Shown here: piece by piece, positions 2,785 through 18,897 of the stretch
Layout: every line of letters begins with the position of its first letter
Position numbering within the stretch: the stretch's first letter is position 1
Position numbers and translations under genes: made by a program
Notes under the pieces: generated by a model
Told to the model about the DNA's origin: nothing
What the model saw: only the letters and a program-made list of their open reading frames with translations
Databases searched by the model: none
IMG/VR virus record: IMGVR_UViG_3300046791_000458
Span: 1-55,067 of that record
DNA length: 55,067 bases
DNA from: a virus
Strand: one strand, 5' to 3'

Positions 2785-3017
2785 ATCTTCACTCTAGCCT
2801 TCCAGGCCTTGCGAAAAATAGCAGCGAGATCCGTGAATCCGGCGGCCCGCGCGAAATACTCCAGCTTTATCAGATTCGTAGTGCTGGGCACGAAATGCCC
2901 CTGCTCATAGTTGGATATTGTGACATTCGTTAGCTTTAGCAATTTGCTGAAGCTCTGCTGATCAAGACCGAGGTTTAGCCGGAGGACTTTGACCGCCTTC
3001 GGGATTCCTATTTTCAT
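2781..3017 (-). CDS. Cro/CI-type helix-turn-helix regulator
   Basis: The 78-residue product has a standard HTH_3 (Xre) fold: the two recognition helices are visible in LDQQSFSKLLKLTNVTISNYEQG followed by HFVPSTTNLIKLEYFARAAG. It has no sensor or cleavage domain, so it is closer to Cro or a plasmid-type regulator than to a full CI repressor. The ATG at 3017 overlaps the upstream stop (ATGA); an upstream in-frame start would run through the neighbour. It sits inside the operon rather than at a divergent promoter, so it may regulate the 5.83-kb promoter from within. That target is an inference. Confidence 0.75.
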   Translation of the reverse strand: MKIGIPKAVKVLRLNLGLDQQSFSKLLKLTNVTISNYEQGHFVPSTTNLIKLEYFARAAGFTDLAAIFRKAWKARVKI

Positions 3018-5963: not shown

Positions 5964-6040
5964 GGATTACTTTTGTCCACTCGAAAATGGCAGATGGATT
6001 ACTTTTGTCCACTCGATAGATGGATTACTTTTGTCCACTC
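5964..6040. repeat. three direct repeats resembling an IS21-family end
   Basis: GGATTACTTTTGTCCACTC occurs three times (5964-5982, 5996-6014, 6022-6040), with starts 32 and 26 bases apart; the first two copies extend by GA. Multiple copies of a GGATTACTTTTGTCC-like word at the terminus are what I remember of IS21-family (istA/istB) elements. No transposase gene is present, so this would be a solitary relic end. The third copy supplies the last codons and stop of the gene at 6025. Confidence 0.5.
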
Positions 6041-6411
6041 ACTGGGCGCCGTTTCCCGGGGCGGCGCTGCCGGCGGTAGAAGGGGCAGCCCGCGGCGTGG
6101 CCGAGGCCGGTGCCGGAGCGGTCCGCCCGGGCCTCGGCCCGGGCCAGCGTCATCCGCCCGCACCCGCACCGGGGCGCGCTCGGGTCCACCGGCGCCCGCC
6201 TGCCGGGGCGCCGGTGGGCGCCCACGAGGCGCAGGGCCTCGCTCCGCTCCTCGGGGGTGGTGCCCTGCCAGCGGGCCGCCGTGGCCGCCGCCAGGATCGC
6301 GCGGCGGTCCTCTAGCGTGGTGCCCCTCCACCGGCGGGCCGCCATCAGGCGCGCCTGGGCGGCCATCTCCTCGGGGGATTGGTCTGGGTGCAGGTGGGGC
6401 GCTTTAGCCAC
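6025..6411 (-). CDS. basic repeat protein with W-x-G-T-T-x-E-x-R units
   Basis: The 128-residue protein has tandem units RRWRGTTLEDRRAIL and ARWQGTTPEERSEAL in its first 65 residues, then a Cys-containing stretch (CGCGRMTLARAEA, CPFYRRQ) that may bind metal. The units resemble those of the gene at 5279, although an insertion-like repeat cluster now separates the two genes. It starts at a GTG just inside the end of the upstream gene, whose final codons supply AGGAGG. Its last four codons lie in the third GGATTACTTTTG repeat, so the natural C-terminus may have been replaced. Confidence 0.55.
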   Translation of the reverse strand: MAKAPHLHPDQSPEEMAAQARLMAARRWRGTTLEDRRAILAAATAARWQGTTPEERSEALRLVGAHRRPGRRAPVDPSAPRCGCGRMTLARAEARADRSGTGLGHAAGCPFYRRQRRPGKRRPVSGQK

Positions 6412-7378
6412 GGGCCTCCTGGGTGGCCACCCGGCGGGCGGCCTGCTCGATCACGCGGGCGACCTGGGCATCCTGGGTGGCGCGCAGTTGGGTGACGGTG
6501 GCGGCCCCGCCCAGGAGGCCGTAGCGGGCGCAGAACGCATCGATACCGGCGCGGCAGTAGCCCACGGCCCTGGCGTCGTCCACGGTGCAGGTGAGGGCTC
6601 CACAGAGGCGGGCGATCAGGCGGGCCTTGCGCGCGGCCCGGCCCTGGATCTGGGCGACGCGCGCCAGGGCCAGCTTGCGTTCGCGTTCCCGGCGGCACTC
6701 GTCCAGCGTCGCGCCGTGCTCCCAGTAGGCCTCCAGGCCCTGGGTGGTGGGATAGTGGACCGCGTAGCCGGTGATGCCGTCCTTCAGGCTGTAGCGCAGT
6801 ACGATGCCGGGCCGCTTCTCGATGGCGTAGAGGTCGCCGTCCAGGAGGCTCGGGTGGCTGTAGTCCGCCCCCGGCACCAGCGGGACCTGGAGCGTCTTGC
6901 CGCGCGCCGAATGCAGGATCACCACCGGCTCACCGGCGGTGTAGCCAACCTCGTAGGCGGCGTTGACGTAGTTCGCCGGGCGACCGTAGCTCTTGCTGTA
7001 GGCGTGCCAGTCGGTCACCGGCACGGGCGCGCGGCCCCACACGATCTCGGCCCTGGAGCTGGCGAACAGCGGCGTGATATGCCGGTGGTAGCTGTAGGCC
7101 AGCAACAGGCCCCGGCGGGTGTCGCCGCTCTCGTGGGCGCGGCAGGCGTCGCGTACGGCCTGGGGGAATCGCCGGGTGCGCGGGACCCACCTGGGGGCCT
7201 CGGCGGGCTCCTGGGGCCTCGTAGCGGCCATCAGGCGCTTGCGTACGCGCTCCTGGCGAAGGCGCAGGGCCGCCACGCCGGGCAGGCCCGCGCCGTCTAT
7301 ACGGCAAAACGCCGCGAGTCTCGCGGCGGCGGTGGGGGCCGCCATAGCGGCCCCGATCAGTTTTTGCAGTTGCGTCAT
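6404..7378 (-). CDS. hypothetical protein (324 aa)
   Basis: This protein is not recognised. It has an Ala/Arg-rich N-terminal third, a central region with YGRPANYVNAAYEVGYTAGE and a mixed C-terminus with a few Cys (CGALTCTVDDARAVGYC). The upstream gap (7379-7400) holds the start signals. The C-terminal QEARG codons contain AGGAGG, which serves as ribosome binding site of the next gene. No membrane segment or signal peptide is visible. Confidence 0.55.
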   Translation of the reverse strand: MTQLQKLIGAAMAAPTAAARLAAFCRIDGAGLPGVAALRLRQERVRKRLMAATRPQEPAEAPRWVPRTRRFPQAVRDACRAHESGDTRRGLLLAYSYHRHITPLFASSRAEIVWGRAPVPVTDWHAYSKSYGRPANYVNAAYEVGYTAGEPVVILHSARGKTLQVPLVPGADYSHPSLLDGDLYAIEKRPGIVLRYSLKDGITGYAVHYPTTQGLEAYWEHGATLDECRRERERKLALARVAQIQGRAARKARLIARLCGALTCTVDDARAVGYCRAGIDAFCARYGLLGGAATVTQLRATQDAQVARVIEQAARRVATQEARG

Positions 7379-7400
7379 GGGGTGTTTCTCCGTTTTCAGT

Positions 7401-7631
7401 TTACTCTGCCGCCTGGAAGGTGGAGCCCTCCGGCGGGCAGCCTTCGTTCCACTCCAGGCGCTCGACCTTGCCGCGTACGTTGGTGGTCACCGTGCCGGTG
7501 CCCAGGATGCCGTAGAGCGTGCGCTCGACGGCCACCAGGGCCTTGAAGGCCGCCGCCCGGGCAGTGCCCTCGTACACCGGGTAAGGCCGGTGGCCGCCGT
7601 CGTCCACGCGAACGAAGTAGGGGGCCTTCAT
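7401..7631 (-). CDS. small hypothetical protein
   Basis: The 76-residue product (MKAPYFVRVDDGG, then YPVYEGTARAAAFKALVAVERTLYGI) is of unknown function and looks like a small alpha/beta domain. The ATG at 7631 overlaps the TGA of the upstream gene (ATGA), which fixes the start. Confidence 0.55.
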   Translation of the reverse strand: MKAPYFVRVDDGGHRPYPVYEGTARAAAFKALVAVERTLYGILGTGTVTTNVRGKVERLEWNEGCPPEGSTFQAAE

Positions 7632-7930
7632 GCGCCCACCTCCAGCGGCAACGTGTCCGCGCCTACCAGCCAGTAGCGCACGCCGGTGGTCTTCAGCTCG
7701 GCCTGCAGCCACTCGCGAAACTCACGCGGGCTCTCGCCCTTCCAGGGGTAGTCGTCAATGGTCTTCAGGGCCTCCAGGATCGCGTCACGGTGAATCAGCG
7801 TCGCCGTGCCGGGGGCCAGCGTAAGCACGGCCCCTAGCTCTTCCAGGCCGTCTTCCACGACCTCTAATTGTTCCAGGCTGATGCCCCTGGATTCCAGGAA
7901 GGGGTACAGCAATTCGATGGCGATGGTCAC
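7628..7930 (-). CDS. small hypothetical protein
   Basis: The 100-residue product starts at a GTG overlapping the upstream TGA (GTGA). It reads IELLYPFLESRGISLEQLEVVEDGLEE near the N-terminus, then a short helix pair, and ends with TGVRYWLVGADTLPLEV. No family is recognised. Confidence 0.55.
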   Translation of the reverse strand: MTIAIELLYPFLESRGISLEQLEVVEDGLEELGAVLTLAPGTATLIHRDAILEALKTIDDYPWKGESPREFREWLQAELKTTGVRYWLVGADTLPLEVGA

Positions 7931-8349
7931 TTGCCCTCCTTGTGCTCGTCCACGATCTCGCGGCAGGCGGCTTCTTCTTCGTCGAGGTCGTCGTTCTCAC
8001 CAGCGGCCTCGCGCAGGTACTCCACGGTCATGTTGCTCAGGTCCTCGTTATCCTCTACGTCGAAGCCAAGCTCAAGCTCCAGGGCGCGCAAGGCCTCCCA
8101 GAATTCGGTCTGCCTGCGCGCGGCCACGGCCAGGAGAAACTCGGCGGGGTTCTCCGATTCCAGAGAGCCCGCCAAGCAGGGCTGGCAGTGCAGCACGCCA
8201 TCGTGAAACTCCAGGGCGGTCACAATCAGCTTGTACTGCTCATCGTGATGCGGCAGGCCTTCGTCCGCCCCGCAGAGGGCGCAGAAGCGGCCCGTCGCCA
8301 TCACCGTGCGCTCATTGCGCGGCGTCTCGTACTTCGTCTTTTTCGTCAT
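7927..8349 (-). CDS. small zinc-finger-like acidic protein
   Basis: The 140-residue protein has two C-x-x-C pairs (CALCGADE at about 23-30 and CQPCL at about 55-59) separated by a short strand-rich segment. This would form one treble-clef-like zinc site. A strongly acidic helical C-terminus follows (ENDDLDEEEAAC). It ends in codons that supply AAGGAGG for the next gene. Function is unknown; a partner-binding or nucleic-acid role is only inferred from the zinc motif. Confidence 0.6.
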   Translation of the reverse strand: MTKKTKYETPRNERTVMATGRFCALCGADEGLPHHDEQYKLIVTALEFHDGVLHCQPCLAGSLESENPAEFLLAVAARRQTEFWEALRALELELGFDVEDNEDLSNMTVEYLREAAGENDDLDEEEAACREIVDEHKEGK

Positions 8350-8351
8350 GG

Positions 8352-9074
8352 TTAGTGGTTCTCCATGCAGCGGTGGCTGCAATAAATAAATACGTTTCCG
8401 GCCTCGGCTCCTTCGCCGAAATCCACGCAGGCCTCGCCGCTCACGAGGTCGCCCAGGTTGAGGGGCGCGCCACACTTGCGGCAGGAGGTCACCTCGGCCT
8501 CCAGGGCCTTGGTGCGGGCCGCGTAGGCCTTGCGCAGGGCCGCCTGGGTGGCGGCGGGCACCTTGCCCCTCAGACCGGCCTTGACGGCCTCGGCAGTGGC
8601 CTCGCGGACCAGCTCCTCGGCGTGCTCCAGGCCCACGCAGACCGGACAGATGCCCTCGTCGTCGCACCGGGTCCCGCAGGTCAGGCACGGGCCGGGCTTC
8701 TCGCAATCGCAGTTCGCCATGTCCTCGCCGCAAGTGACGCAGTACACGTCGTCGTAGCCCGGCTCGATGCCGGTAGTCTTGCGGGCGTCCTTGATCAGAC
8801 CGTTGATGGTCTGGCACGCATCCTCCTGGGTGAACCCGCCGCGCGTCTCGCGCTCGGTGTGCAGGCGGGCGACCTGCTCTGTGAATTCGATTATCTTGGC
8901 GGTGGTGGTCATCAGGTATCTGCCGTCGTACAGGACCGCCCCTTTCAGGCGGCCCGTCGTGCCTTCCGGCCACCCGTCCTGGGCGGAGGCGGCGAACTCC
9001 AGGTCGCCGTCTGTCCATACGTCATACGCCGTATCGTAGTGCAGCGTGTAGCCGTCGTCAGTCAGGAACGTCAT
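8352..9074 (-). CDS. multi-zinc-ribbon protein (240 aa)
   Basis: The N-terminal 100 residues form a non-cysteine domain (YTLHYDTAYDVW, then LMTTTAKIIEFTEQVARLH). Four C-x-x-C or related clusters follow: CVTCGEDMANCDC, CLTCGTRC, CPVC and, near the C-terminus, CRKCGAPL with CSHRC. Three zinc sites seem likely. The gene starts at ATG 9074, with AAGGAGG supplied by the last codons of the upstream gene. No known family is assigned. Confidence 0.6.
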   Translation of the reverse strand: MTFLTDDGYTLHYDTAYDVWTDGDLEFAASAQDGWPEGTTGRLKGAVLYDGRYLMTTTAKIIEFTEQVARLHTERETRGGFTQEDACQTINGLIKDARKTTGIEPGYDDVYCVTCGEDMANCDCEKPGPCLTCGTRCDDEGICPVCVGLEHAEELVREATAEAVKAGLRGKVPAATQAALRKAYAARTKALEAEVTSCRKCGAPLNLGDLVSGEACVDFGEGAEAGNVFIYCSHRCMENH

Positions 9075-9076
9075 AG

Positions 9077-9358
9077 CTAGTTTTCCTCCTTCGCAAGTTG
9101 TATGGCCTTGGCGGCCAGCTTGAATCCTTCGTCGTCGCCCAGGCGCGAGGTCGCCTCGTCGTACAGCATGCGGACCTGGGCGGCCACCGTGTGCAGGTCG
9201 CCGAAATCCTCGTGGGTGTCGTCGCCCCACAAGGTGATATCGCCCATTGCGCTGTAGAGCTGCTCGGTGTCGATCTCGGCCCGGCGGGCCATGCCGCGCA
9301 GGGTACGCAGGGCCGCGCGGCGGGCCTTGATTGCGTCAGTGAGAGCAATTTTCGTCAT
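9077..9358 (-). CDS. small helical hypothetical protein
   Basis: The 93-residue product is predicted mostly alpha-helical (IKARRAALRTLRGMARRA, then LHTVAAQVRMLYDEATSRL). It belongs to the accessory operon and uses the embedded site GAGGAGG at the end of the upstream gene. Function is unknown. Confidence 0.55.
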   Translation of the reverse strand: MTKIALTDAIKARRAALRTLRGMARRAEIDTEQLYSAMGDITLWGDDTHEDFGDLHTVAAQVRMLYDEATSRLGDDEGFKLAAKAIQLAKEEN

Positions 9359-9360
9359 GG

Positions 9361-9843
9361 TTAGTTCTCCTCCTCGATTTCGATGGCCTCGGCGCTGTAG
9401 TCGCCCGCCGGGTCTTCCAGGCCCATGTCCGCTTCCCAGTCGGCGGCGGCGGCCTCGGCGGCGGCCTCCGTTGCGTACCGCTCGGGAAACGTGCCGCTGG
9501 CGTTCGCGCCGTTGTCCCAGTTGACGGCCCACTGGCGGAGCTTCAGCTCCTCGGACCCGGTGCCCTCCTGGCCGGGAAACCCGGCCTCCTCGTTGGTGAT
9601 CCACCACCACGCCATCACGTAGGCCCCGGCGGCGTCGCCCATGCTCACGCAGGCATCGTGGTCCACTTCCAACTCGCCCTCGCGGGCGAACTCCACGGCG
9701 GCCTCGCGGAAGCGGGCCTCCACCTTGGCGTCGCAGGCCTCCTGGTAGTGGCGCACGCGCTCCTGGAAGTGCAGCACGGCGGGCTCGGTGGTGGCCACCG
9801 CAAGTAGCGCGGCGGCCTTGTCGTCATCGACTCTGATCCACAT
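9361..9843 (-). CDS. hypothetical acidic protein (160 aa)
   Basis: The N-terminal half is helical (DDDKAAALLAVATTEPAVLHF). The C-terminal half is acidic with an alanine-rich run (TEAAAEAAAADWEADMG) and ends IEIEEEN, where GAGGAG codes both for the acidic tail and for the next gene's ribosome binding site. A YVMAWWWITNEEAG segment near the middle is hydrophobic but too short for a membrane span. No family is recognised. Confidence 0.5.
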   Translation of the reverse strand: MWIRVDDDKAAALLAVATTEPAVLHFQERVRHYQEACDAKVEARFREAAVEFAREGELEVDHDACVSMGDAAGAYVMAWWWITNEEAGFPGQEGTGSEELKLRQWAVNWDNGANASGTFPERYATEAAAEAAAADWEADMGLEDPAGDYSAEAIEIEEEN

Positions 9844-9844
9844 G

Positions 9845-10504
9845 TTATTCGTCCTCCTGGGTGTGAATGAAGAAAGCCTGCCCGCTGGCGAATTCCAGTA
9901 ACAGCGACGGGTCATCCGGCGTGCCGTCCTGGGAGACGGTCACGCCCGCGATGCCCTGCACGGCGCGGGCGATCAGGTTGTGGACGTCCGCCTCGGTGAC
10001 CTCCTGGGCGGTGGCCTCCTGGTCCTCGGCCAGGGCCTCGGCCTCGCTGGCGGCCTTGTCCACGCGGGCCAGCACGTCCGCCATCACGGTGCGCACCTGC
10101 TCGATCTCGGCGACGCTGGTCGCGCAGTTGATCGCGACGGTGACCGGCGCGAGGTAGGCCTGCACGGCGCGCAGGATCGCGGCGTGGCCGGTGGCGGCCT
10201 TGATGCCGCTGGTCAACGTGGCCCCGGTGAGGCCTGCCTCGCGAACGAAGCCGTGGAACATGCGCGCGAAGTTGGGTGTGAGGTCAAACTCCTGGGGCGC
10301 GGCGGCCTCCTGGGCCATCGTGGCGGCAGTGACCGGCGCGGCCTCCCGGGCGGCCTCCAGGGCGGCGGCATACGTCTCGGTGTCCCAGGGCGTCCAGACG
10401 GTGTCCCTGAGAGGCGTGTTGCACTTCCACGGCTTGAGGCGGGCGTGCTCTTTCTTGGTGCCGCCGCAGTGGCTGCAACGGCTGGTGATCTGTTGGTCTG
10501 TCAT
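9845..10504 (-). CDS. hypothetical protein with N-terminal zinc ribbon
   Basis: The 219-residue product begins with CSHCGGTKKEHARLKPWKC, a four-ligand zinc knuckle, followed by about 190 Ala/Glu-rich, mostly helical residues that include several QEA peptides. Its final codons CAGGAGGAC contain the embedded ribosome binding site of the next gene. The architecture suggests a small adaptor or regulator, but no homologous family is recognised. Confidence 0.55.
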   Translation of the reverse strand: MTDQQITSRCSHCGGTKKEHARLKPWKCNTPLRDTVWTPWDTETYAAALEAAREAAPVTAATMAQEAAAPQEFDLTPNFARMFHGFVREAGLTGATLTSGIKAATGHAAILRAVQAYLAPVTVAINCATSVAEIEQVRTVMADVLARVDKAASEAEALAEDQEATAQEVTEADVHNLIARAVQGIAGVTVSQDGTPDDPSLLLEFASGQAFFIHTQEDE

Positions 10505-10525
10505 GGTTGGTTTCCTTTCGATGGA

Positions 10526-10867
10526 TTACTTCTGTTCGAACGCATTGAAGAGCTGCTTGGCCATCCGGCGGCCCCGCGCCCGGCGGGTTTCGATGGCGGC
10601 CTCGTGCTCGGCGGCGGTGAAGTGCAGGCGCGCGTCCAGGGTATAGAACACGTACACGTAGCCGTCCTTGGTCGCGCCCCTCACGAGGTCGCGCTCGGTC
10701 CAGCCCATCTGGATGCAAAGGGCGCGCGCGGCGGCGTCATGGTTGGCCTGGGTGTCCAGCTCGTAGTCCCAGGCCTGGGCGTAGCGGTTGCGGTCGCCAT
10801 CGTGGGCGGCGATCTTGGCCCCGCGTGCGCTGGTCGCGGGCCGGTAGAGAGTGGTGATGGTCTTCAT
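10526..10867 (-). CDS. small hypothetical protein
   Basis: The 113-residue protein contains YRPATSARGAKIAAH, then WDYELDTQANHDAAARAL and VYVFYTLDARLHF, compatible with an alpha/beta fold. The AHDGDRNR and LDTQANHDAAAR stretches recall small phage proteins of unknown role. Its start is preceded by GGAGGAGGAG in the last codons of the upstream gene. Confidence 0.55.
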   Translation of the reverse strand: MKTITTLYRPATSARGAKIAAHDGDRNRYAQAWDYELDTQANHDAAARALCIQMGWTERDLVRGATKDGYVYVFYTLDARLHFTAAEHEAAIETRRARGRRMAKQLFNAFEQK

Positions 10868-10870
10868 GGT

Positions 10871-11503
10871 TTACTCCTCCTCCTGGGCCTGGGATTGGTC
10901 GCCCATGTCGTCGCGGCGGCCCTCCTGGTAGTCGATCCACCGGCTCCAGCGGCCCGTGATGGTGCGGCCCTGGACGAAGCGTTCCTCGATCTCGATCTCG
11001 GCGGTCCCGTGGGTGACCACCAGCGTGACTTCGATGGCGGACACGATGGCATACATGGCCGTCTCGTCGTCGCCGTCGTAGAGCGTGTTGACGCCCTCGC
11101 CGCGAAACAGGTTGATGGAGTGCAGGTAGACCCGGTAGCGTCGCGTACCGGCCTCCTGGGCGGGCTCGCAGGTGCAGAGGCCCATGATATTGCCGCAGGC
11201 CGGGCAGGCCGCCGGGAAGGCGGCCTCCTGGGGCTCCTGGGCGGGCTCCTGGGCCGCCGGGGCCTCGGGCTCCACCGGCGGGGCGGCGGCCTCCTGGCGG
11301 GCCTCCTGGGCGGCCTTGCGGGCCTGCCAGTCCCGCTCGTTCTCCTCGCTCCACTTGATGGACGCGAGGCATTTCTTGCAGGTGGGTTCGAAGGCCGCAA
11401 TCTGGGCCTGGGGCACATGCGCGTGGCAGAGTGTCCAGACAGTGCCCACGGTCTGAGGATCGTAGGAGAGTGCCCGCTTGGCGTGGGTCTTGAGGCGTGC
11501 CAT
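10871..11503 (-). CDS. hypothetical protein with zinc motifs and QEA-rich linker
   Basis: The 210-residue product has an N-terminal C-x-H/C-x-x-C unit (LCHAHVP, then CKKCLASI), a linker from about 65 to 95 made of repeated QEA/QEP peptides, then CPACGNIMGLCTC and a C-terminal domain of about 90 residues. The linker is the clearest place where the CCAGGAGG word is translated repeatedly. The ATG at 11503 overlaps the preceding TAA (TAATG). Confidence 0.55.
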   Translation of the reverse strand: MARLKTHAKRALSYDPQTVGTVWTLCHAHVPQAQIAAFEPTCKKCLASIKWSEENERDWQARKAAQEARQEAAAPPVEPEAPAAQEPAQEPQEAAFPAACPACGNIMGLCTCEPAQEAGTRRYRVYLHSINLFRGEGVNTLYDGDDETAMYAIVSAIEVTLVVTHGTAEIEIEERFVQGRTITGRWSRWIDYQEGRRDDMGDQSQAQEEE

Positions 11504-11862
11504 TACTTGGCCTCCTGGGTGAGCGGCAGGACGTTCTCGAAGCCGTCCGCGTCGCGCTCCATGCGGTAGCCGTAGTGGGCCAGGATCTCCTCGTCGCGGG
11601 CGTCGCCGTTGAACACGAGACGGCGCTCGGTCTTGTAGCTGAAGTCCGCGTTCATGCCCACGTAGCAGTCGCGCCAGATGACCACCGTCCAGCGAATGTC
11701 GATGATCTGGACGTGGCGGCCCCAGCGGTTGAACGTGCCGTCCGCGTCGCAGTACAGGCCGTTGATGGAGAAGATCTCGCCCTCGGGCGTCTTGATGTAG
11801 TCGCGCCCGTTGCCGGGGCTGTACAGCGTGTCTTTGTCGAGTACTCGTTTGATGTTTGTCAT
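11503..11862 (-). CDS. small hypothetical protein
   Basis: The 119-residue product looks like a compact beta-rich domain (IKTPEGEIFSINGLYCDADG, then QIIDIRWTVVIWRDCYVGMNA). It ends with TQEAK, encoded by the CAGGAGGCCAAG module that forms the next gene's ribosome binding site. No family is recognised. Confidence 0.55.
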   Translation of the reverse strand: MTNIKRVLDKDTLYSPGNGRDYIKTPEGEIFSINGLYCDADGTFNRWGRHVQIIDIRWTVVIWRDCYVGMNADFSYKTERRLVFNGDARDEEILAHYGYRMERDADGFENVLPLTQEAK

Positions 11863-11886
11863 GGGGTTTCCTTTTCTCTCTGAATT

Positions 11887-12186
11887 CTAGCGGGCCGCGA
11901 TTACCTTGGTGATCGCCGCCAGGGCGGCCTCGGCCTCGGCGATGTACGGGTCTTCGTCCGCGAACAGGCCGGTGCGGCGGCGTTCCAGCTCGTCCTCCAC
12001 GAAGTCGTAGGCGGCGTCCAGGCGGACCGGCGCGGCGGCGTCGAGTTCGCCCAGGAGGGCGACCGCCATCGAGTACGTGCAGTCGGACTGGCACTCGCCG
12101 GAGCAATTGCAGGAGGCAAGGCCGGTCACGTCCTGGAGCACTTCGTGGACGCGCGCAAATTGGTCGTCGCTGATGACGTAGGGCAT
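11887..12186 (-). CDS. small hypothetical Cys-containing protein
   Basis: The 99-residue product has CNCSGECQSDC at about residues 26-36, a tight Cys cluster suited to metal or disulfide chemistry, followed by two helices (AVALLGELDAAAPVRLDAAY). It is preceded by the QEAK junction of the upstream gene (CAGGAGGCCAAGTAG then ATG). Confidence 0.5.
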   Translation of the reverse strand: MPYVISDDQFARVHEVLQDVTGLASCNCSGECQSDCTYSMAVALLGELDAAAPVRLDAAYDFVEDELERRRTGLFADEDPYIAEAEAALAAITKVIAAR

Positions 12187-12417
12187 CTACTTGGCCTCCT
12201 GGTGGAGCTTCCACACGCGGCGGCGCGGCAGCACGGTGTAGGCCTCGTAGCGGCAGCCGTCGATGCACTGTTCGTCCAGGCGGCGGTTGTAGTCGAAGGC
12301 CTTGTCACGGGCCGTTTCCAGGTCCGACATGGGCCAGACCTCCATAGCGCCCCGGTCCTGCAGATCGTGGCACACGAGGTAGGCCGGGGCGGCGGGTACG
12401 TCTTTCAGCTTCGTCAT
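12187..12417 (-). CDS. small hypothetical protein
   Basis: The 76-residue product reads YLVCHDLQDRGAMEVWPMSDLETARDKA and ends LHQEAK, the standard operon tail. Its start is preceded by AAGGAAAGG. Function is unknown. Confidence 0.55.
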   Translation of the reverse strand: MTKLKDVPAAPAYLVCHDLQDRGAMEVWPMSDLETARDKAFDYNRRLDEQCIDGCRYEAYTVLPRRRVWKLHQEAK

Positions 12418-12419
12418 GG

Positions 12420-13235
12420 TTAGTTTTCCTTTCCTTCGATTACTTCGATTACCTTGGGGCGGGCCACTACCGTTTGCAGCTCACCGTTGCGCTCGCCGTG
12501 CTCGGCCACCGTCGCCTTGCAGCGGACCGTCTCGCCCTTGGCGGCCAGCGACCCGGAGCCCTTGTAGACCACCCGGTTCCCGGCGGCGTCGCGGCAGAGG
12601 TAGATCGTGCTCGGCGCGGCGTGGTAGAAGGCGGGCAGGTTGCTCTCCAGGCGGATGGTGTGCTCGACCACCAGGACCAGCTCCAGGCGTTCGCCTACCG
12701 TGCCCACGTGCGTGCTGGCGGCCTTCGCCAGGGCCTGGGCCTCCAGGCGCTCGATGGCGCGCAGGGCGGCGGCCTCCTGGGCCTCGGTGAGCGTGCCCCG
12801 GTCGCGCGCCTGGGCCTCGATGGAGCCCAGGAAGCGGTCCCCGGTGGCGTAGCGGGCAAGACCGGCGGCCAGGGCCGGGCGGGCCTCCTGGAAGGCCTGG
12901 AAGCGCACGGCGGCGGCCTCCTGGGCGACGGCGGCGGCGGCCTGGGCCTTGGCCACCTTGGTGGCGTTGCGCTTGGCCTGGGCGGCGTTGAGCTTGGCCA
13001 GGGCCTCGGGCGTGTAGACCGTGACCTCGGCGACCGGCTCGAAGCGGTCACCGGCGCACCGGTAGCAGGTGAACCCGGGCCAGCCGCGCCAGCCACCGGC
13101 CCCGCCGCAACGGGTGCAGGGCTCCTGGGTGTAGTGCTTGGCGGTGCCCCTGGCGAGATCCACGGCGTGGACGCCGCCGGTGTGGGGCGCGCCGTAGCGC
13201 GTGAGCCACTGGGTGTCGATCATGGGGGCGGTCAT
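12420..13235 (-). CDS. phage protein with DnaJ-like zinc motif and OB-like C-terminus
   Basis: In the 271-residue protein, residues 38-61 hold two C-x-x-C-type pairs (CTRCGGAGG and CYRCAG) in the spacing of DnaJ-type zinc loops. A long Ala/Gln-rich helical linker (about 80-165) follows, then a strand-rich C-terminal domain containing GETVRCKATVAEHGERNG, the look of a small OB-type fold. I have seen this architecture in phage and plasmid proteins of unknown role; nucleic-acid binding is an inference. Confidence 0.55.
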   Translation of the reverse strand: MTAPMIDTQWLTRYGAPHTGGVHAVDLARGTAKHYTQEPCTRCGGAGGWRGWPGFTCYRCAGDRFEPVAEVTVYTPEALAKLNAAQAKRNATKVAKAQAAAAVAQEAAAVRFQAFQEARPALAAGLARYATGDRFLGSIEAQARDRGTLTEAQEAAALRAIERLEAQALAKAASTHVGTVGERLELVLVVEHTIRLESNLPAFYHAAPSTIYLCRDAAGNRVVYKGSGSLAAKGETVRCKATVAEHGERNGELQTVVARPKVIEVIEGKEN

Positions 13236-13237
13236 GG

Positions 13238-13510
13238 CTACTTGGCCTCCTGGCGGGTAGCGAAGTAGCAGGACTTGGGATCGACGTGGCAGGTGCTTTT
13301 GCCGTCGCGCACCGTGAGGCGCTTGGCGGTCACGCCCACCAGCTCCACGGTGCAGTACTCCTTCGATTTGCCGAATGGCCCGCCGCCGTGCGGGTTGTCG
13401 AAGGTGCGATACCAGCGGACCCAGATGGGCAGGTCCGCGATGCGGTTGGCCAGGGCGGCCCTGGCGTTATCGATGGTGGCTCGTTCTGTGATGGTCCATG
13501 TGATGGCCAT
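13238..13510 (-). CDS. small hypothetical protein
   Basis: The 90-residue product (ALANRIADLPIWVRWYRTFDN, then TVELVGVTAKRLTV) ends RQEAK. It starts at ATG 13510, one base after the upstream TAA, with AGGAGG in the final codons of that gene. No family is recognised. Confidence 0.55.
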   Translation of the reverse strand: MAITWTITERATIDNARAALANRIADLPIWVRWYRTFDNPHGGGPFGKSKEYCTVELVGVTAKRLTVRDGKSTCHVDPKSCYFATRQEAK

Positions 13511-13511
13511 G

Positions 13512-13781
13512 TTACTTGGCCTCCTGGGCGAAGCGCAGGGCGGCGGGCTTGACCGTGCGGCCCATGCAGTTGGACACGTAGCCCGCCCAGTGGGCGGCCA
13601 CGCGCTTGCGGTCCCAGGCCGTGCCGGGGATGGCGTAGCTTCCGCCCTGGCCGCCGCTCATCTCCACGCGGTCGCTGTACAGCGTGCAGGCCAGGGTAAC
13701 CGAGGGCTGGCCGCCCTGGCGCGGCATGCGGTAGGTCCCGATCACCGTGCCCTTCGTCGTCGTCGTCGTTGTCTGCGTCAT
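13512..13781 (-). CDS. small hypothetical protein, first gene of the 13.8-6.0 kb operon
   Basis: The 89-residue product has a threonine run at its N-terminus and a beta-rich centre (GTVIGTYRMPRQGG, then SVTLACTLYSDRVEMSGG). It ends AQEAK. The start ATG at 13781 has AGGAG 10 bases upstream. It is the promoter-proximal gene behind the 13.81-13.94 kb control region. Confidence 0.55.
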   Translation of the reverse strand: MTQTTTTTTKGTVIGTYRMPRQGGQPSVTLACTLYSDRVEMSGGQGGSYAIPGTAWDRKRVAAHWAGYVSNCMGRTVKPAALRFAQEAK

Positions 13782-13813
13782 GGGGTTGCTTTCTCCTGGG
13801 ACTAGCTTACCTT

Positions 13814-13940
13814 GGCATGGACTATAGCTGTCAAATGGCCGGGGCGGCCACTAAGCCAAGTGCCTGCTGGCATTGGGAAAATAAATATGCGGCAGGCACT
13901 TGACAGATTCTGAAAATATCTTGAAAACACTATTGACTTA
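13814..13940 (-). promoter_or_regulatory. control region, copy A of a duplicated regulatory element
   Basis: This 127-bp segment between two gene blocks is clearly similar to 16962-17087. Shared blocks include GGCATGGAC, TGTCAAATG, AGCCAA, GAAAATAAAT, CTTGACAGATT and CTATTGACTT in the same order. On the minus strand it offers TTGACA upstream of the first gene of the operon, but no convincing -10 box at standard spacing. Copy A also has an 11-bp inverted repeat (CAAGTGCCTGC at 13857-13867 and its complement at 13892-13902) around an AT-rich loop. Together this suggests a co-regulated promoter pair. Confidence 0.55.
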
Positions 13941-13957
13941 CCCCTGCGATTCATGCC

Positions 13958-14191
13958 TTATCGCTTACCGGACCTGGAACTCTTTTTAGCCGCCCGCTCG
14001 GCGGCGGCGGCCTTGTGAAGCATCTTGAACGCGAGGTCCAGCACGGTCCGGTAGTCCACGTCCAGGCGGAAGCGGCGGCCCTTCTCGCGGAGCGTCAGGT
14101 GGCCGGGATACAGCTCGATCAGGAGCGGGCGGCCCTTGTAGCAGACCGCCGTCTCACGCCGCACCGGCCTGCCCGATTCCAGGCGCGTCAT
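13958..14191 (-). CDS. small basic hypothetical protein
   Basis: The 77-residue protein has a beta-rich N-terminal domain (YKGRPLLIELYPGHLTLREKG) and a basic, helical C-terminus (AAAAERAAKKSSRSGKR). It begins with an ATG overlapping the upstream TGA. It is the last gene of the 16.9-14.0 kb operon, just before control region A. Confidence 0.55.
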   Translation of the reverse strand: MTRLESGRPVRRETAVCYKGRPLLIELYPGHLTLREKGRRFRLDVDYRTVLDLAFKMLHKAAAAERAAKKSSRSGKR

Positions 14192-14598
14192 ACGGCCTCC
14201 TGGGGGCGCACGGCGCGCTTCTTCTTGGCCAGTCCGCGCTTGGTCCAGACGCCCTGCATGCGGCCCCAGTAGGCGTGTTGGTCCTCGGGAATCGCGGAGC
14301 CCATAGCGGTCCGCCCGGGCGTGCGGGCGATGCCCGGGCAGCAGTTGCCGGTGGTGATGGCGAGGTCGCCCTGGGCGATGGCCTCGACGATAGCGCGGGC
14401 CTCCTTCACGGCCCGGAAACCCATGCCGTTGTGACTGACCACGGTGAAGGCCTGGGAGGGATGCCAGAGGGAATACGGCCAGTTGGCGGTAGGGTGGCCG
14501 CAGTGCTCCACGTGCCACCCGGAGGTGTGCGTCCAGAGGCCGCCACACCCGCCGGGGCCACGCTGCACGGTCCAGCCGGGGAAGATCCTGGCGGCCAT
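14188..14598 (-). CDS. hypothetical protein (136 aa)
   Basis: The product is rich in Trp, His and Gly (GGLWTHTSGWHVEHCGH, then WPYSLWHPSQAF), with a helical ARAIVEAIAQGDLAI segment. It ends RPQEAV, a variant of the operon's QEAK tail, with AGGAGG 4-11 bases before the next start. No family is recognised. Confidence 0.55.
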   Translation of the reverse strand: MAARIFPGWTVQRGPGGCGGLWTHTSGWHVEHCGHPTANWPYSLWHPSQAFTVVSHNGMGFRAVKEARAIVEAIAQGDLAITTGNCCPGIARTPGRTAMGSAIPEDQHAYWGRMQGVWTKRGLAKKKRAVRPQEAV

Positions 14599-14600
14599 GT

Positions 14601-14903
14601 TTACTTGGCCTCCTGGGCGGCCAGGAGGGCCGCCTCGTGCAGGAAGGAGAGGGGCACTTTCGTGCCGCCGTCGAAGGCCTTGGGGAGCAGGCCGTCCTCC
14701 AGGTAGGCGTACTGCCGGTCGTCCAGGTCGCCGTCGATATCGTTCCAGATATTGCGGGTGAGAGCCACGTCCACCACCCGGCCCTCGGCGCGCAGCTCCT
14801 GGGCGCAACGCAGGGCCTCGGGCAGGTGGTCGAAGTGGTCGAGGTCCACGATATCGCGCTCCTCGCCCTGGAGGGTTTCAACTACCCATTCGTAGGCGAC
14901 CAT
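14601..14903 (-). CDS. small hypothetical protein
   Basis: The 100-residue acidic product (MVAYEWVVETLQGEERDIVDLD) ends AAQEAK, with the embedded AGGAGG ribosome binding site for the next gene. Its ATG at 14903 overlaps the end of the upstream gene. Function is unknown. Confidence 0.55.
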   Translation of the reverse strand: MVAYEWVVETLQGEERDIVDLDHFDHLPEALRCAQELRAEGRVVDVALTRNIWNDIDGDLDDRQYAYLEDGLLPKAFDGGTKVPLSFLHEAALLAAQEAK

Positions 14904-15073
14904 TATTCGACCTCCGCAATGAATTCGTCGTTGCCGCCCAGCTCGGTTTCCTGGAGGTAGCAGAGGCGCAGGGCCAGCTCACCGGCCTCGGCCAGGGACG
15001 GGATGCCCCTGGCGATGGTGGAGTAGCCGCCGTTGCGATTGGAGCGGCGGACCACGCAGTAGGTGGCGTCCAT
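14903..15073 (-). CDS. very small hypothetical protein
   Basis: The 56-residue product (MDATYCVVRRSNRNGGYSTI, then IPSLAEAGELALRLCYLQET) looks like a compact beta-alpha unit. The ATG at 15073 lies just before the upstream stop, a coupled start. Function is unknown. Confidence 0.55.
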   Translation of the reverse strand: MDATYCVVRRSNRNGGYSTIARGIPSLAEAGELALRLCYLQETELGGNDEFIAEVE

Positions 15074-15074
15074 G

Positions 15075-15422
15075 CTACCGGCCCTCCCGTTCTTCGATCT
15101 GATCTGCCAGGGCCTCGACACCGGCCAGCACGTCCTCCAGGTTCAGCGTGCAGTCGCAGATGACGTCCCAGCCGTCGTTGCCGTACACGAGGCGGACCCA
15201 GCCCTTGTCCTCGCCCTGGCGCAGGATCAGGTAGTCCTCGTCGGTATTCATGAGGGCCGCCAGCACGGCCTTGGCGTCGCGCGAGTCAGTGATGGCCAGC
15301 TCCTCGCCGCCGTCGTTGACGCTCAGGGCGTAGCCCGCCTTGAGGGCGTCGGCCACCAGCTTGCGCACGATGCGCCGTTCGATTGCTTGTCGTTTCTCGA
15401 TGGTCATTGTCATGGGGTTCAT
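15075..15422 (-). CDS. conserved phage hypothetical protein
   Basis: The 115-residue protein matches a small family seen in many phages: ALSVNDGGEELAITDSRD, NTDEDYLIL, GWVRLVYGNDGWDVICDCTLNLE and a C-terminal helix. The conserved VYGNDGxDVI and DYT-NLE motifs are present. No role has been assigned to the family that I know of. In-frame ATGs at 15422 and 15413 are both possible starts. Confidence 0.65.
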   Translation of the reverse strand: MNPMTMTIEKRQAIERRIVRKLVADALKAGYALSVNDGGEELAITDSRDAKAVLAALMNTDEDYLILRQGEDKGWVRLVYGNDGWDVICDCTLNLEDVLAGVEALADQIEEREGR

Positions 15423-15437
15423 ATCCTCTCTTCTCGG

Positions 15438-15650
15438 TTAGTAACTGCTTGCGACTACGTTCTTGCCAAGCATCACGCGGTAGCGGCTCAGGCCGGTGGC
15501 CGCGCAACGCTTCATGGCCGCCTGGGCGGCCTCCAGTGTGGGGAAGCTCTTCAGTGTGCGCCAGGGCGACCAGGAGGCGCAGCGGCCCCCAAACGCGCGG
15601 CGCACGATGCCCTGGTGATTGCTCATCTGGACGCGGTATTGGGCGGCCAC
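15438..15650 (-). CDS. small basic hypothetical protein
   Basis: The 70-residue basic product (IVRRAFGGRCASWSPWRTL, then FPTLEAAQAAMKRCAATG) starts at a GTG that overlaps the upstream TAG by one base (TAGTG). An internal ATG at 15626 is an alternative. No family is recognised. Confidence 0.5.
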   Translation of the reverse strand: MAAQYRVQMSNHQGIVRRAFGGRCASWSPWRTLKSFPTLEAAQAAMKRCAATGLSRYRVMLGKNVVASSY

Positions 15651-15943
15651 TAGCGGGCCTCCTGGGCGCAGGTCTGGTCCACACGGTGGACGCGGCTGCA
15701 ACGCGGGCAGGCGGACGCCTGGAGCGTCCAGGCGGCCACCTGGACGAGGTCCACGAGGCGGCCTAGCTCGATCCACTGCTGGCCCTTGCCTGCCACCGGC
15801 TGGATCAGGAGGCGGACCTGCCCCCAGGAATTTTTGGCGTCCACCACCGTGCAGGCGATGTTTACCGATTCGAACCTCACCAGGACCTCGGCTCCGATTG
15901 CCGGGGCCAGCTGGCGGGCGGTGTGTTGCGTCTGTTTCGTCAT
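15650..15943 (-). CDS. small hypothetical protein with Cys-His cluster
   Basis: The 97-residue product has a beta-rich core (IGAEVLVRFESVNIACTVVD, then GQVRLLIQPVAGKGQQWIEL) like a small barrel, and a C-terminal CPRCSRVHRVDQTC metal-binding-type motif. It ends QEAR, encoded by the same AGGAGG module that drives the next gene. Confidence 0.55.
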   Translation of the reverse strand: MTKQTQHTARQLAPAIGAEVLVRFESVNIACTVVDAKNSWGQVRLLIQPVAGKGQQWIELGRLVDLVQVAAWTLQASACPRCSRVHRVDQTCAQEAR

Positions 15944-15979
15944 GGTTTTTCCTCTCGTACTCTCGTCGTCTCGGGCGGC

Positions 15980-16924
15980 CTAGTAGCCGCCCCCACAGTC
16001 CGCCCACTCGGCGGCGGCGATGCCACCGGCGGGCACGTACCCGGCGTCCAGCTTGGATTGGATCTGGAGCAGACTCAGGTTCTTTTTGAAGGTGTGTCCG
16101 ATCTTGGTTTCCAGGGCCACGTGGGTGTCCAGGAGGGCGCGGTTGTGGTGCCCGGCGATCAACAATGCGGCGGGCGGGGCGAAGATGCAGAACACGCAGG
16201 ACAAGCGCCCCATGCCGAGATCGTAGGCCCGGTGGTAGGGCAGGTTGTTCTCCCGAATCGTCTCCCACACCTGGGCCTCGCTCCAGTCATGAATCGGCAG
16301 CCAGCGGGTGATCTCGCGGACCGTGCTGGAGGCGCGGTTGTCGCGCTGTAGGATCTGCTCCACGGCGCGGGTGTCGCTCTCCTGGCCGCGCAGGCCAATG
16401 CAGTTGAGGACCGCCACCGGCTCGGCATCCTTGGGGGCCTTGGCGCGCCCCCAGGTCTTCATGTTGTAGGCGGCGACCAGCTTGGTGATGACCGGCGACA
16501 CTTGGTCCCTCTTGTGATCGCTGGTGCAGAACCGGGTCGCGCTCGACGGCCACATGCCGCGCTTCTCGACGTGGGCCAGGAGGTCGCCCTTCTCCCGGCG
16601 GGTGATGATCAGGGGCACGCCGTAGGCGTCGCACTGGGCCTGGGCCAGCTCCTGGACGCCCGCCCACTCACTGCGCCCCAGATCGCAGTGGACGGCCACC
16701 ACGCGGTCCAGGACGCCCTGGGCGCGGGCCAGGGCCACGATGCGGTGCAGCATGGTCTGGGAGTCCTTACCGGCGCTCGTGTTGATCACAATAATCTGGA
16801 AGCGGCGCAGGTCCAGGTCCAGGATGGAGCGGTCGCTGGCCTTGAGCAGGGCCACGGCGCGGTTGAATGCGGCGGCCTGCTCGGCTAACTTCTCGGCGGT
16901 CAGTTTGCGGTGGACGTTCGTCAT
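15980..16924 (-). CDS. PAPS reductase-family protein (PP-loop)
   Basis: The 314-residue protein has the PP-loop nucleotide-binding motif SAGKDS at about residue 50, preceded by the hydrophobic strand IIVIN. Family hallmarks follow: CTSDHKRDQV, GLRGQESDTR, LPIHDWSEAQVWETI and a C-terminal RLSCVFCIF pair. These are the signatures of the phosphoadenosine-phosphosulfate reductase-like family, whose members adenylate or reduce substrates. Phage members are of uncertain role, with DNA or tRNA modification as candidates. The three conserved cysteines may hold a metal or cluster. I chose ATG 16924 because AGGAGG lies 9 bases upstream. It is the first gene behind control region B. Confidence 0.8.
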   Translation of the reverse strand: MTNVHRKLTAEKLAEQAAAFNRAVALLKASDRSILDLDLRRFQIIVINTSAGKDSQTMLHRIVALARAQGVLDRVVAVHCDLGRSEWAGVQELAQAQCDAYGVPLIITRREKGDLLAHVEKRGMWPSSATRFCTSDHKRDQVSPVITKLVAAYNMKTWGRAKAPKDAEPVAVLNCIGLRGQESDTRAVEQILQRDNRASSTVREITRWLPIHDWSEAQVWETIRENNLPYHRAYDLGMGRLSCVFCIFAPPAALLIAGHHNRALLDTHVALETKIGHTFKKNLSLLQIQSKLDAGYVPAGGIAAAEWADCGGGY

Positions 16925-16961
16925 GGGCGCGGCCTCCTGGGCCGTAGACCCAGGATGACAT

Positions 16962-17087
16962 GGCATGGACGTGAGGTGTCAAATGCCGGGCGGCGGCAGT
17001 TAGCCAAACCCCTGTAAACATTGGTGAAAATAAATTTCCGGCCATGCTTGACAGATTTTGAAAAAAGTCAAAAATCGCTATTGACTT
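16962..17087 (-). promoter_or_regulatory. control region, copy B of a duplicated regulatory element
   Basis: It is similar over its whole length to 13814-13940 (see that entry) and lies at the same distance upstream of the first gene of its operon. Conserved TTGACA appears on the minus strand 32-38 bases upstream of the PAPS-reductase start. Copy B additionally abuts the dyad TGACTTGTAAGTCA (17082-17095). Confidence 0.55.
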
Positions 17088-17383
17088 GTAAGTCAGTTCG
17101 TGCCGCGAGGGCATGTAAAGTATATCGGAGCTGTAACTCTTTTTGAGGGCCGCGCGCATCCTATATAGGCGCGGCGGCGACCCGGCCTCCTGGGGCGCGG
17201 GCGGCGGCGGCCAGGGCCTCGCCGGTGGACCTGGACCTGGGCGACTCGCCGGTGGAAGCACCGGCTCGACCACGGCCTCCTGGGCCGAGGTTGCCACCGG
17301 CGGCAGGTGTACGGCGCGGCGGGCTCCGGCTCCTGGGCGGCGGGTGCCGGTGACCGGCGGCGGCGTCGCGGCCTGGGCTCGAG

Positions 17384-17450
17384 TATCGGACAAGCTTGTC
17401 TGAAACCGCGGAGCCCGCGGTCCGGTCTTTTCGGACACCGTTGTCCGATA
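17384..17450. promoter_or_regulatory. pair of inverted 20-bp dyad sites
   Basis: TATCGGACAAGCTTGTCTGA (17384-17403) and, on the other strand, TATCGGACAACGGTGTCCGA (17431-17450) share the pattern TATCGGACAA-n(2-3)-TGTC-y-GA. They face each other across 27 bases containing two CCGCGG palindromes. Each is itself a dyad. This looks like a paired operator or a recombination or partition site. Confidence 0.55.
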
Positions 17451-17488
17451 GGGTGCGCGGGCTCTCCACAATCGTGCTACGCCCCAAC

Positions 17489-17524
17489 GGTGGCATCCTG
17501 CCGCCTGGGGTGGCATCCTGCCGC
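17489..17524. repeat. two 16-bp direct repeats
   Basis: GGTGGCATCCTGCCGC occurs at 17489-17504 and 17509-17524, a 20-bp period, between the twin dyads and the DnaA-type boxes. It could be a pair of iteron-like sites. Confidence 0.6.
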
Positions 17525-17560
17525 ACCTGGGGGCGGCCACGGCGACATGTTCACTTAGCC

Positions 17561-17580
17561 TGTGGAAAAGCTGTGGATAA
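17561..17580. promoter_or_regulatory. two DnaA-type boxes
   Basis: On the plus strand TGTGGAAAA (17561-17569) and TGTGGATAA (17572-17580) are complements of TTTTCCACA and TTATCCACA. The second is a perfect match to the bacterial DnaA box. Two boxes 11 bases apart beside direct repeats suggest a replication origin or DnaA-controlled promoter. Confidence 0.5.
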
Positions 17581-17793
17581 AGGGGGGAGGCACGTGTATG
17601 GCCAAACTCGCGACGAGGGGGTGGAGGATGCGGAGGCCCACCTGGACCCGGCGACGCAACCTGGGGCTTCTCTGCGCGATTGCGGGCATGGAACTAAAGT
17701 CCTGTTTTCCGGGGGTGAAAGTACTAGGCGGGAGTACCAGGGCGGAAAGCGTAGCACCGTCCGGCGGCGTCGCGACGCAAGGCGTCGCTCCTT

Positions 17794-18354
17794 TCAGACG
17801 TCTGGCTCCGGTTCGTCGCAGGCCTCGGCGGCCAGCTCGGCCTCGGCCTCCTGGGCGACCCAGGTCGCGGCGGCCTCCGGGTCATGGATGGCGACCGCCG
17901 TCACCGGCTCCGCCCGGGCCGCCATACCCTGCACCTCGGTGTACAGGCGGCGGAGGCTGGCCAGGAGTTTGTCCTGGTCCGAGGGGGCGACGTCCGGCGC
18001 GGCGGCGGCGAGCGTCGTCTCGGCGATCCGGTAGAGCGCCAGGGCCGCCTTGAGGCGGACCTCCTCGCTGGCGGCGGACCGGGACAGATCGGAGAGGATG
18101 CGGACACTGTGCTCCCGCATCCCCCGGGCGTCCCCGGCGGGCGGGCAGGACAACCACGTGAGGCGTCTGATCTCGGCGGCGACGTTGGGGCGTTGGGCAA
18201 TGTCGCGCACCCGCCGCTCCAGGGCCGTGCGCTTTTTCTGGGGCACGTACCCGGCGGCGGCGGCGGCCTTGACCCGGCCTTCACCGGCGGCCACGTGGGC
18301 CGCGAACTTGGCCTCCTTCACGCGCAGCGGCGTGTCCACGGTGGTGACTGGCAT
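17794..18354 (-). CDS. terminase small subunit-like DNA-binding protein
   Basis: In the 186-residue product, residues 10-65 (LRVKEAKFAAHVAAGEGRVKA, AAGYVPQKKR, then IAQRPNVAAEIRRLT) follow the pattern of phage small terminases: a first helix ending F-x-x-x-(V), an AA-x-x-AGY turn, and a 'NPNV-A-x-I' end of the HTH. The C-terminal 120 residues are helical and acidic with QEAEAE peptides. Small terminases recognise the packaging site and partner the large ATPase. No large terminase follows, and the gene is leftward and isolated from the virion genes, so a different HTH role is possible. Confidence 0.45.
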   Translation of the reverse strand: MPVTTVDTPLRVKEAKFAAHVAAGEGRVKAAAAAGYVPQKKRTALERRVRDIAQRPNVAAEIRRLTWLSCPPAGDARGMREHSVRILSDLSRSAASEEVRLKAALALYRIAETTLAAAAPDVAPSDQDKLLASLRRLYTEVQGMAARAEPVTAVAIHDPEAAATWVAQEAEAELAAEACDEPEPDV

Positions 18355-18897
18355 CAGGCCCCAGGATAGCCGTTACGAGGGCCGGTGGCGCATAGGCGTT
18401 GGGCGTCGTCCAGGGGGCCTCGCAGGATCGATAACTCCCGCGCCCCGGCGCGCCTTAGCGGGCCGATTTTGCGTCGCCGAGGGGGGGGGGTGCCGTCACC
18501 CACGCGGGCGGCACCGGCGACGCGCGTTTGCCCCTGCCACGCAGCCCTGGCCAGGGCTCCTGGCGGCCAGGGCTCCACCGGCGGCGGCCTGCACCGGGCG
18601 GCGGCGACCACAAGGGGTAGTGGTCGCGCCCCTGGCCTGGAGCCCAATTGGGCTAAGTCCAATCGAATCAGGCGAAACGCACTGTGCGGAAGTTGACATA
18701 ATGCACCTTATCGGAAGCCTGGGGTGATTGGCGTACGTCCCGGGGCGTAGGCATAGCCTATGGTCTATCCCCTCGGGCCTCGGGTCCTGGGCGTAGCCCC
18801 GGGCCGGTGGATTACTCCCTACCCCATACCCTAGCCCCGCGCGGCGCGCGCGCGAGAACGAACTCTTGTTGATATTATTCCCGCCCCATGGCCTCCG

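What the first reader, a model, noticed from the sequence alone, without database searches (positions are those of the whole stretch)
6400..17900. CCAGGAGG word saturates the accessory operons and serves as embedded ribosome binding site
By eye I count about 28 copies of CCAGGAGG on the coding (minus) strand against about 6 on the other, within 11.5 kb; the rest of the window has few. At gene ends it occurs as CAGGAGGCC(AAG)-stop-(0-3 bases)-start at about ten junctions (for example 15943/15650, 14601/14598, 14188/14191, 13512/13510, 13238/13235, 12187/12186, 11503/11503, 6404/6411). This gives the unrelated products a common C-terminal QEAK/QEAR. Inside genes it makes repeated QEA peptides. 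A translation-coupling module may have spread by copying, or the word has another DNA role.
Basis: partly seen in the sequence, partly recalled or inferred. Interest (0 to 1): 0.75.

Follow-up and report, generated by a model that had tools for sequence, protein, structure and literature searches.

The report
Repeated ribosome-binding word at gene junctions
In one crowded gene cluster of a bacterial virus, many unrelated small genes end with nearly the same few bases, because those bases double as the ribosome landing site for the next gene; related viruses use a different repeated start signal at the same place, so the signal seems to belong to the genome rather than to the gene.

Summary
The count is real: 28 CCAGGAGG on the coding strand against 7 on the other in 6.4-17.9 kb (0.4-4 expected). 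The copies fall into two classes. (1) Ten lie in the last codons of a gene and supply an AGGAGG Shine-Dalgarno for the next start, at stop/start junctions of -8 to +3 bases; five share the exact 15-mer CCAGGAGGCCAAGTA. (2) Fourteen others in operon genes are internal, in the same QE frame, mostly in Ala/Gln/Glu-rich linkers; only two have a start codon 4-12 nt downstream. 

QEA is the codon-favoured way to embed AGGAGG (99% of frame weight), but the 15-mer recurrence exceeds SD plus codon usage (0 of 20,000 simulations). In the one QEAK-ending gene with a full-length ortholog (75% identity over 114 aa), the relative ends LEVK: the peptide is replaced, GGAGG is kept. Other relatives repeat different start modules; two use hammerhead-like elements, none found in the window.

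Verdict: embedded Shine-Dalgarno sites for translational coupling, homogenised within this genome, analogous to (not homologous with) mycobacteriophage Start-Associated Sequences, plus linker-encoded copies. Copying is likely but unproven; a DNA role is unsupported.

The parts
15656..15665 (-). CCAGGAGGCC at the end of gene 15650-15943 (AQEAR stop), SD for GTG start 15650, spacing 7
14602..14616 (-). 15-mer CCAGGAGGCCAAGTA, end of gene 14601-14903 (AQEAK), SD for ATG 14598, spacing 10; forms a CCTCCTGG-ccgc-CCAGGAGG hairpin in the MFE fold
14194..14203 (-). CCAGGAGGCC, end of gene 14188-14598 (QEAV), next start ATG 14191, spacing 4
13513..13527 (-). 15-mer, end of gene 13512-13781 (AQEAK), SD for ATG 13510, spacing 9
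13239..13253 (-). 15-mer, end of gene 13238-13510 (RQEAK), SD for ATG 13235, spacing 10
12188..12202 (-). 15-mer, end of gene 12187-12417 (HQEAK), SD for ATG 12186, spacing 8
11504..11518 (-). 15-mer, end of gene 11503-11862 (TQEAK), SD for ATG 11503, spacing 7; ortholog in L088 ends LEVK
10879..10886 (-). CCAGGAGG, end of gene 10871-11503 (QEEE), SD for ATG 10867, spacing 11
9853..9860 (-). CCAGGAGG, end of gene 9845-10504 (QEDE), SD for ATG 9843, spacing 9
6413..6422 (-). CCAGGAGGCC, end of gene 6404-7378 (QEARG), next start GTG 6411, spacing 3 (weak SD geometry)
16931..16940 (-). CCAGGAGGCC upstream of the PAPS-reductase-like gene 15980-16924, SD spacing 8
12771..12924 (-). three internal QEA words (12773, 12884, 12917) in the Ala/Gln/Glu/Lys-rich linker of gene 12420-13235
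11150..11309 (-). four internal QEA words (11152, 11224, 11290, 11302) in the Ala/Gln/Pro/Glu-rich linker of gene 10871-11503; two are 12 bases apart
10000..10313 (-). three internal words (10000, 10015, 10306) in gene 9845-10504
17184..17283 (-). two copies outside called genes (17186-17193, 17276-17283), both in the QEA frame of an open stretch that is not a called gene
6025..16924 (-). accessory operons of small genes carrying the word; 18 of 25 neighbouring pairs in 6000-18400 are within -10..+4 bases, all 18 with SD-like sequence, 13 with AGGAGG

Best explanation
At gene junctions the word is an embedded Shine-Dalgarno site. The genes are packed so tightly that the ribosome-binding site for one gene must lie inside the last codons of the gene before it. 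In this GC-rich codon usage AGGAGG can practically only be read as xAG GAG Gxx, so the upstream protein ends in (Q/K/E)-E-(A/G/E/D), most often QEAK or QEAR. A ribosome that finishes the upstream gene would open the local structure and restart at once on the next start codon (termination-reinitiation). The particular form CCAGGAGGCCAAGTA has become common within this genome, probably by copying or homogenisation of junctions. The internal copies are a separate matter: QEA-containing linkers written in the preferred codons CAG, GAG and GCC. Shown: position, frame, spacing, enrichment, replacement of the ending in an ortholog. Inferred: coupling itself, and copying as the way the 15-mer spread.
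For: Ten copies sit in the last codons of a gene next to a start, eight of them at 7-11 bases. Terminal AGGAGG 14 against 9.9 and GGAGG 17 against 10.7 after synonymous codon shuffling. All 13 terminal AGGAGG are in one frame, which codon usage gives 99% of the weight. 18 of 25 gene pairs are within -10..+4 bases, all with SD-like sequence. Word SDs in gene ends cost about 5-8 kcal/mol to open (one exception, 1.0), free-standing starts in the same operons 1.3-2.1. Five identical 15-mers: 0 of 20,000 simulations under SD plus codon usage. Ortholog of 11503-11862 in L088 (75% over 114 aa) ends LEVK from CTGGAGGTCAAGTAA: peptide replaced, GGAGG kept. Other relatives have their own repeated start modules. 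SD motifs in the 3' end of the upstream gene, with experimentally shown coupling, are described in PMC6728339.
Against: No expression data. The opening energies are no higher than in shuffled flanks overall, so burial follows from composition, not specific selection. Two junctions have SD spacing of only 3-4 bases. The host and its 16S tail are unknown; the flanking CC and the C before AGGAGG do not add to canonical anti-SD pairing (own knowledge). Internal QEA is also enriched (10 against 1.26), so part of the word bias is independent of SD function. Paralogy between the QEAK genes was not demonstrated.
Confidence: 0.75

Rival explanations
1. Pure composition: QEA is a common helix-forming peptide and CAG, GAG and GCC are the preferred codons, so the word needs no further cause.
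For: Synonymous shuffling with proteins fixed already gives 12.7 of the 24 copies in operon genes; internal copies lie mostly in Ala/Gln/Glu-rich linkers.
Against: QEA itself is 18 against 1.33; five identical 15-mers at gene ends are not produced in 20,000 simulations; terminal GGAGG was reached by none of 400 shuffles.
Confidence: 0.1
2. Shared C-terminal peptide with a protein function, such as a tag or stability signal (QEAK/QEAR).
For: Seven products end in QEAK, QEAR or QEARG.
Against: The one full-length ortholog of a QEAK gene ends LEVK; other homologs of operon genes end differently; all 13 endings share AGGAGG rather than one peptide (also QEDE, QEEE, KEEN, EEEN, KEGK).
Confidence: 0.04
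3. A DNA-level signal (recombination, packaging or methylation site) with strand bias.
For: 28 to 7 strand bias; two copies outside called genes.
Against: Confined to one region of one genome; 0-1 copies in the accessory regions of relatives L079, L077, L081, L082 and few in most relative contigs. Coding copies are in one frame, but codon usage alone gives that frame 99% of the weight, so this is weak evidence.
Confidence: 0.05
4. Gene duplication: the operon grew by tandem copying of one small gene with its junction, so the 15-mer is inherited from a common ancestor gene.
For: 15-mer identity beyond convergence; 27-base match with one gap between the 14.6 and 13.5 kb junctions; two operon heads share a 130-bp stretch at 75% identity.
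Against: All-against-all comparison of operon proteins gives only marginal, short hits (best E about 0.001) and none ties the five QEAK genes together.
Confidence: 0.12

Closest known systems
Start-Associated Sequences (SAS) of Cluster K mycobacteriophages (PMC3203893)
   Same: A short repeated asymmetric sequence containing the SD core, in gene orientation, just upstream of many starts of one phage genome.
   Different: Different sequence (GGGATAGGAGCCC; its ATAGGAGCCC part occurs 0 times in the window and 5 times in L071, a mycobacteriophage used as comparison); here the repeat lies inside the upstream coding end and fixes its last amino acids. Analogy, not homology.
Translational coupling by termination-reinitiation with an intragenic SD (PMC6728339)
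   Same: Stop and start overlap or nearly touch and an SD lies in the 3' end of the upstream gene.
   Different: In the passages read, the SDs are not described as one repeated 15-mer; coupling there was measured, here it is inferred.
Clustered hammerhead ribozymes in prophage gene blocks (PMC3088659)
   Same: Relatives L077 and L079 carry repeated elements with a hammerhead core at gene junctions.
   Different: No such element was found in the window.

Membership tests
Cluster K Start-Associated Sequence | 13-bp consensus GGGATAGGAGCCC | tested here: not met
   ATAGGAGCCC 0 in window, 5 in L071
Cluster K Start-Associated Sequence | SD-containing repeat just upstream of many starts, gene-oriented | tested here: met
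Cluster K Start-Associated Sequence | 17-bp inverted repeats upstream of about half the copies | not tested
   no dedicated search was made
Termination-reinitiation coupled junctions | overlapping or nearly touching stop and start | tested here: met
   18 of 25 pairs within -10..+4 bases
Termination-reinitiation coupled junctions | SD in the 3' end of the upstream gene | tested here: met
   18 of 18 SD-like, 13 AGGAGG
Termination-reinitiation coupled junctions | downstream translation depends on upstream translation | not testable with these tools
   needs reporter assays
Hammerhead ribozyme at gene junctions | hammerhead core | tested here: not met
   no Rfam hammerhead match at E up to 1, no core pattern match and no hit of model R1 at E up to 1 in the window

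The most novel reading that the evidence does not exclude
Gene-start modules of this phage clade undergo concerted evolution: each genome homogenises its own start sequence (CCAGGAGGCCAAGTA here, ATCGAAAGGACA-like in L088 and L090, AAGGAATCCCA with a hammerhead-like element in L079), so that orthologous genes carry whichever module their genome uses and their C-termini are rewritten to match. One clear ortholog pair supports it so far.
Probability: 0.35. Interest if true: 0.65.

Novelty: new variant of a known kind. Interest (0 to 1): 0.45.

Why it matters
It shows a regulatory repeat dictating the last amino acids of unrelated proteins, and it points to a set of related phages that use different genome-specific start modules, so that copying against selection of initiation signals can be tested directly.

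Tried and rejected
No near match of 6-18.5 kb in the phage collection. Single-protein pattern scans with the PAPS-reductase-like protein, the primase and the helicase found no relatives in viral contigs; the zinc-ribbon-like protein 12420-13235 and protein 3014-3940 found none in genome contigs, so the host is unknown. Joined operon proteins gave no tblastn match in phages or plasmids. A leader pattern scan returned 8 loci without CCAGGAGG, which I read as chance matches. The tandem CCAGGAGG array in G001 lies in a Pro/Gly-type repeat, not in an accessory operon. Paralogy among operon proteins: not established. Specific burial of the SD: not above shuffled flanks overall. No structure prediction was made.

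Full report
What was checked. CCAGGAGG occurs 28 times on the minus strand and 7 times on the plus strand in 6400-17900, against 9 and 2 in the remaining 43.5 kb. Low-order Markov models expect 0.4 to 4.3 on the coding strand. The maximal-order model gives 28 for a word of which nearly every part occurs only within the word, and says little. The word is therefore a local, strand-biased excess.

Where the copies are. I called genes with a simple codon-model script; starts are therefore estimates. Ten copies lie in the last codons of a gene next to the following start, one lies 8 bases upstream of the PAPS-reductase-like gene, fourteen are internal to operon genes, one is in gene 17794-18354 and two are outside called genes. 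Every copy inside an operon gene reads xxC CAG GAG Gxx. This frame is not independent evidence for a peptide role: codon usage alone gives it 99% of the weight for AGGAGG, because AGG and GGA are rare here.

Junction copies. Thirteen gene ends contain AGGAGG, all in that frame; five share CCAGGAGGCCAAGTA. With proteins fixed and synonymous codons shuffled, terminal AGGAGG is 14 against 9.9 (P 0.0075) and GGAGG 17 against 10.7 (0 of 400 shuffles) (this counts the last 27 bases, slightly more). Drawing codons around a fixed SD from three usage tables never gave five identical 15-mers in 20,000 trials each. So an SD explains the hexamer, but not the whole shared 15-mer. Among 74 sequences compared (73 loci, some overlapping, and the window), the window has the highest recurrence of a 12-mer before starts (5; next 4) and of a 15-mer (5; none above 2 in the rows printed). 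The 16-mer with TAR occurs once each in 24 other viral loci, many of them at stop/start junctions, so single copies arise elsewhere.

Internal copies. QEA inside the proteins is 10 against 1.26 in shuffles. The copies lie mainly in Ala/Gln/Glu/Pro-rich stretches of genes 9845-10504, 10871-11503 and 12420-13235. Two of the fourteen have a GTG 4-12 bases downstream, in 8352-9074 and 12420-13235; I did not test whether either is used. I read these copies as linker sequence in preferred codons, with the excess of QEA itself unexplained.

Relatives. The portal protein led to 23 loci and protein 3014-3940 to nine more around the accessory region. Gene 11503-11862 has an ortholog in L088, 75% identical over 114 residues, ending LEVK from CTGGAGGTCAAGTAA where the window ends TQEAK from ACCCAGGAGGCCAAGTAA. 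Homologs of other operon genes also end differently, but several of those matches are partial. L087, on the same contig as L033, has one exact CCAGGAGGCCAAGTAGCCATGAC junction ending TQEAK. Repeated start sequences differ by genome: ATCGAAAGGACA-like 7 in L088 and 4 in L090, AAGGAATCCCA 5 in L079, ACTTTGAATATG 3 in L087.

Accessibility. Folding 80-100 bases around each start, the word SDs in gene ends cost about 5-8 kcal/mol to open, except 9843 at 1.0; free-standing starts cost 1.3-2.1. This would favour initiation by a ribosome arriving from upstream. Shuffled flanks give similar values, so it is a consequence of composition.

Side finding. Relatives L077 and L079 have intergenic elements with a hammerhead core (CUGANGA, GAA, paired stems) followed by an SD and start. 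Model R1, built from eleven of them, gave 19 matches over 28 sources, none in the window; 8 of 12 pairs show changes on both sides, on an alignment fitted to that structure. No hammerhead family reached its Rfam gathering score. Clusters of hammerheads in prophage gene blocks are already described (PMC3088659).

Conclusion. The junction word works like a repeated ribosome-binding module and most likely couples translation of neighbouring genes. It is not a member of the mycobacteriophage SAS family. How the 15-mer spread is open: copying or homogenisation is my preferred reading; tandem gene duplication and selection for one sequence remain possible.

Noticed in passing
L077 and L079 accessory regions (e.g. 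L079:14156-14234 -, L077:9371-9451 +): Repeated intergenic elements with a hammerhead ribozyme core, then a possible GGGA..UCCC pairing, an SD and a start; 19 model matches over the sources searched, with compensatory changes in 8 of 12 pairs. Four of 19 have U-A instead of A-U at the pair next to the cleavage site, which may make them inactive.
   Followed up: partly
L095:14023-14107, 14327-14415, 14830-14901, 15611-15678 (+); L092:5625-5704 (+): Further matches to the same hammerhead-like model; the L092 one is probably the G009 element already seen.
   Followed up: no
L082:13828-13884 (-), L081:4890-4953 (+): Twister-P5 ribozyme matches above Rfam gathering score in relatives.
   Followed up: no
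window 16961-17087 and 13813-13939 (-): Two operon heads share 130 bp at 75% identity, including TTTGACA and GTCCATGCCA; likely duplicated regulatory regions.
   Followed up: partly
window 6404-16924: Accessory genes use GCC for 75% of Ala codons against 53% elsewhere, and TGA stops in 3 of 24 against 28 of 55.
   Followed up: no
window 29843-30257; L072:6424-6499: Internal repeats in the window; a relative, G001, has a tandem 12-base array containing CCAGGAGG that reads as Pro/Gly-type repeats in one frame.
   Followed up: partly
window 17150-17560 (-): Open stretches rich in Ala/Pro/Gln/Glu words without a called gene; could be a decayed gene.
   Followed up: no
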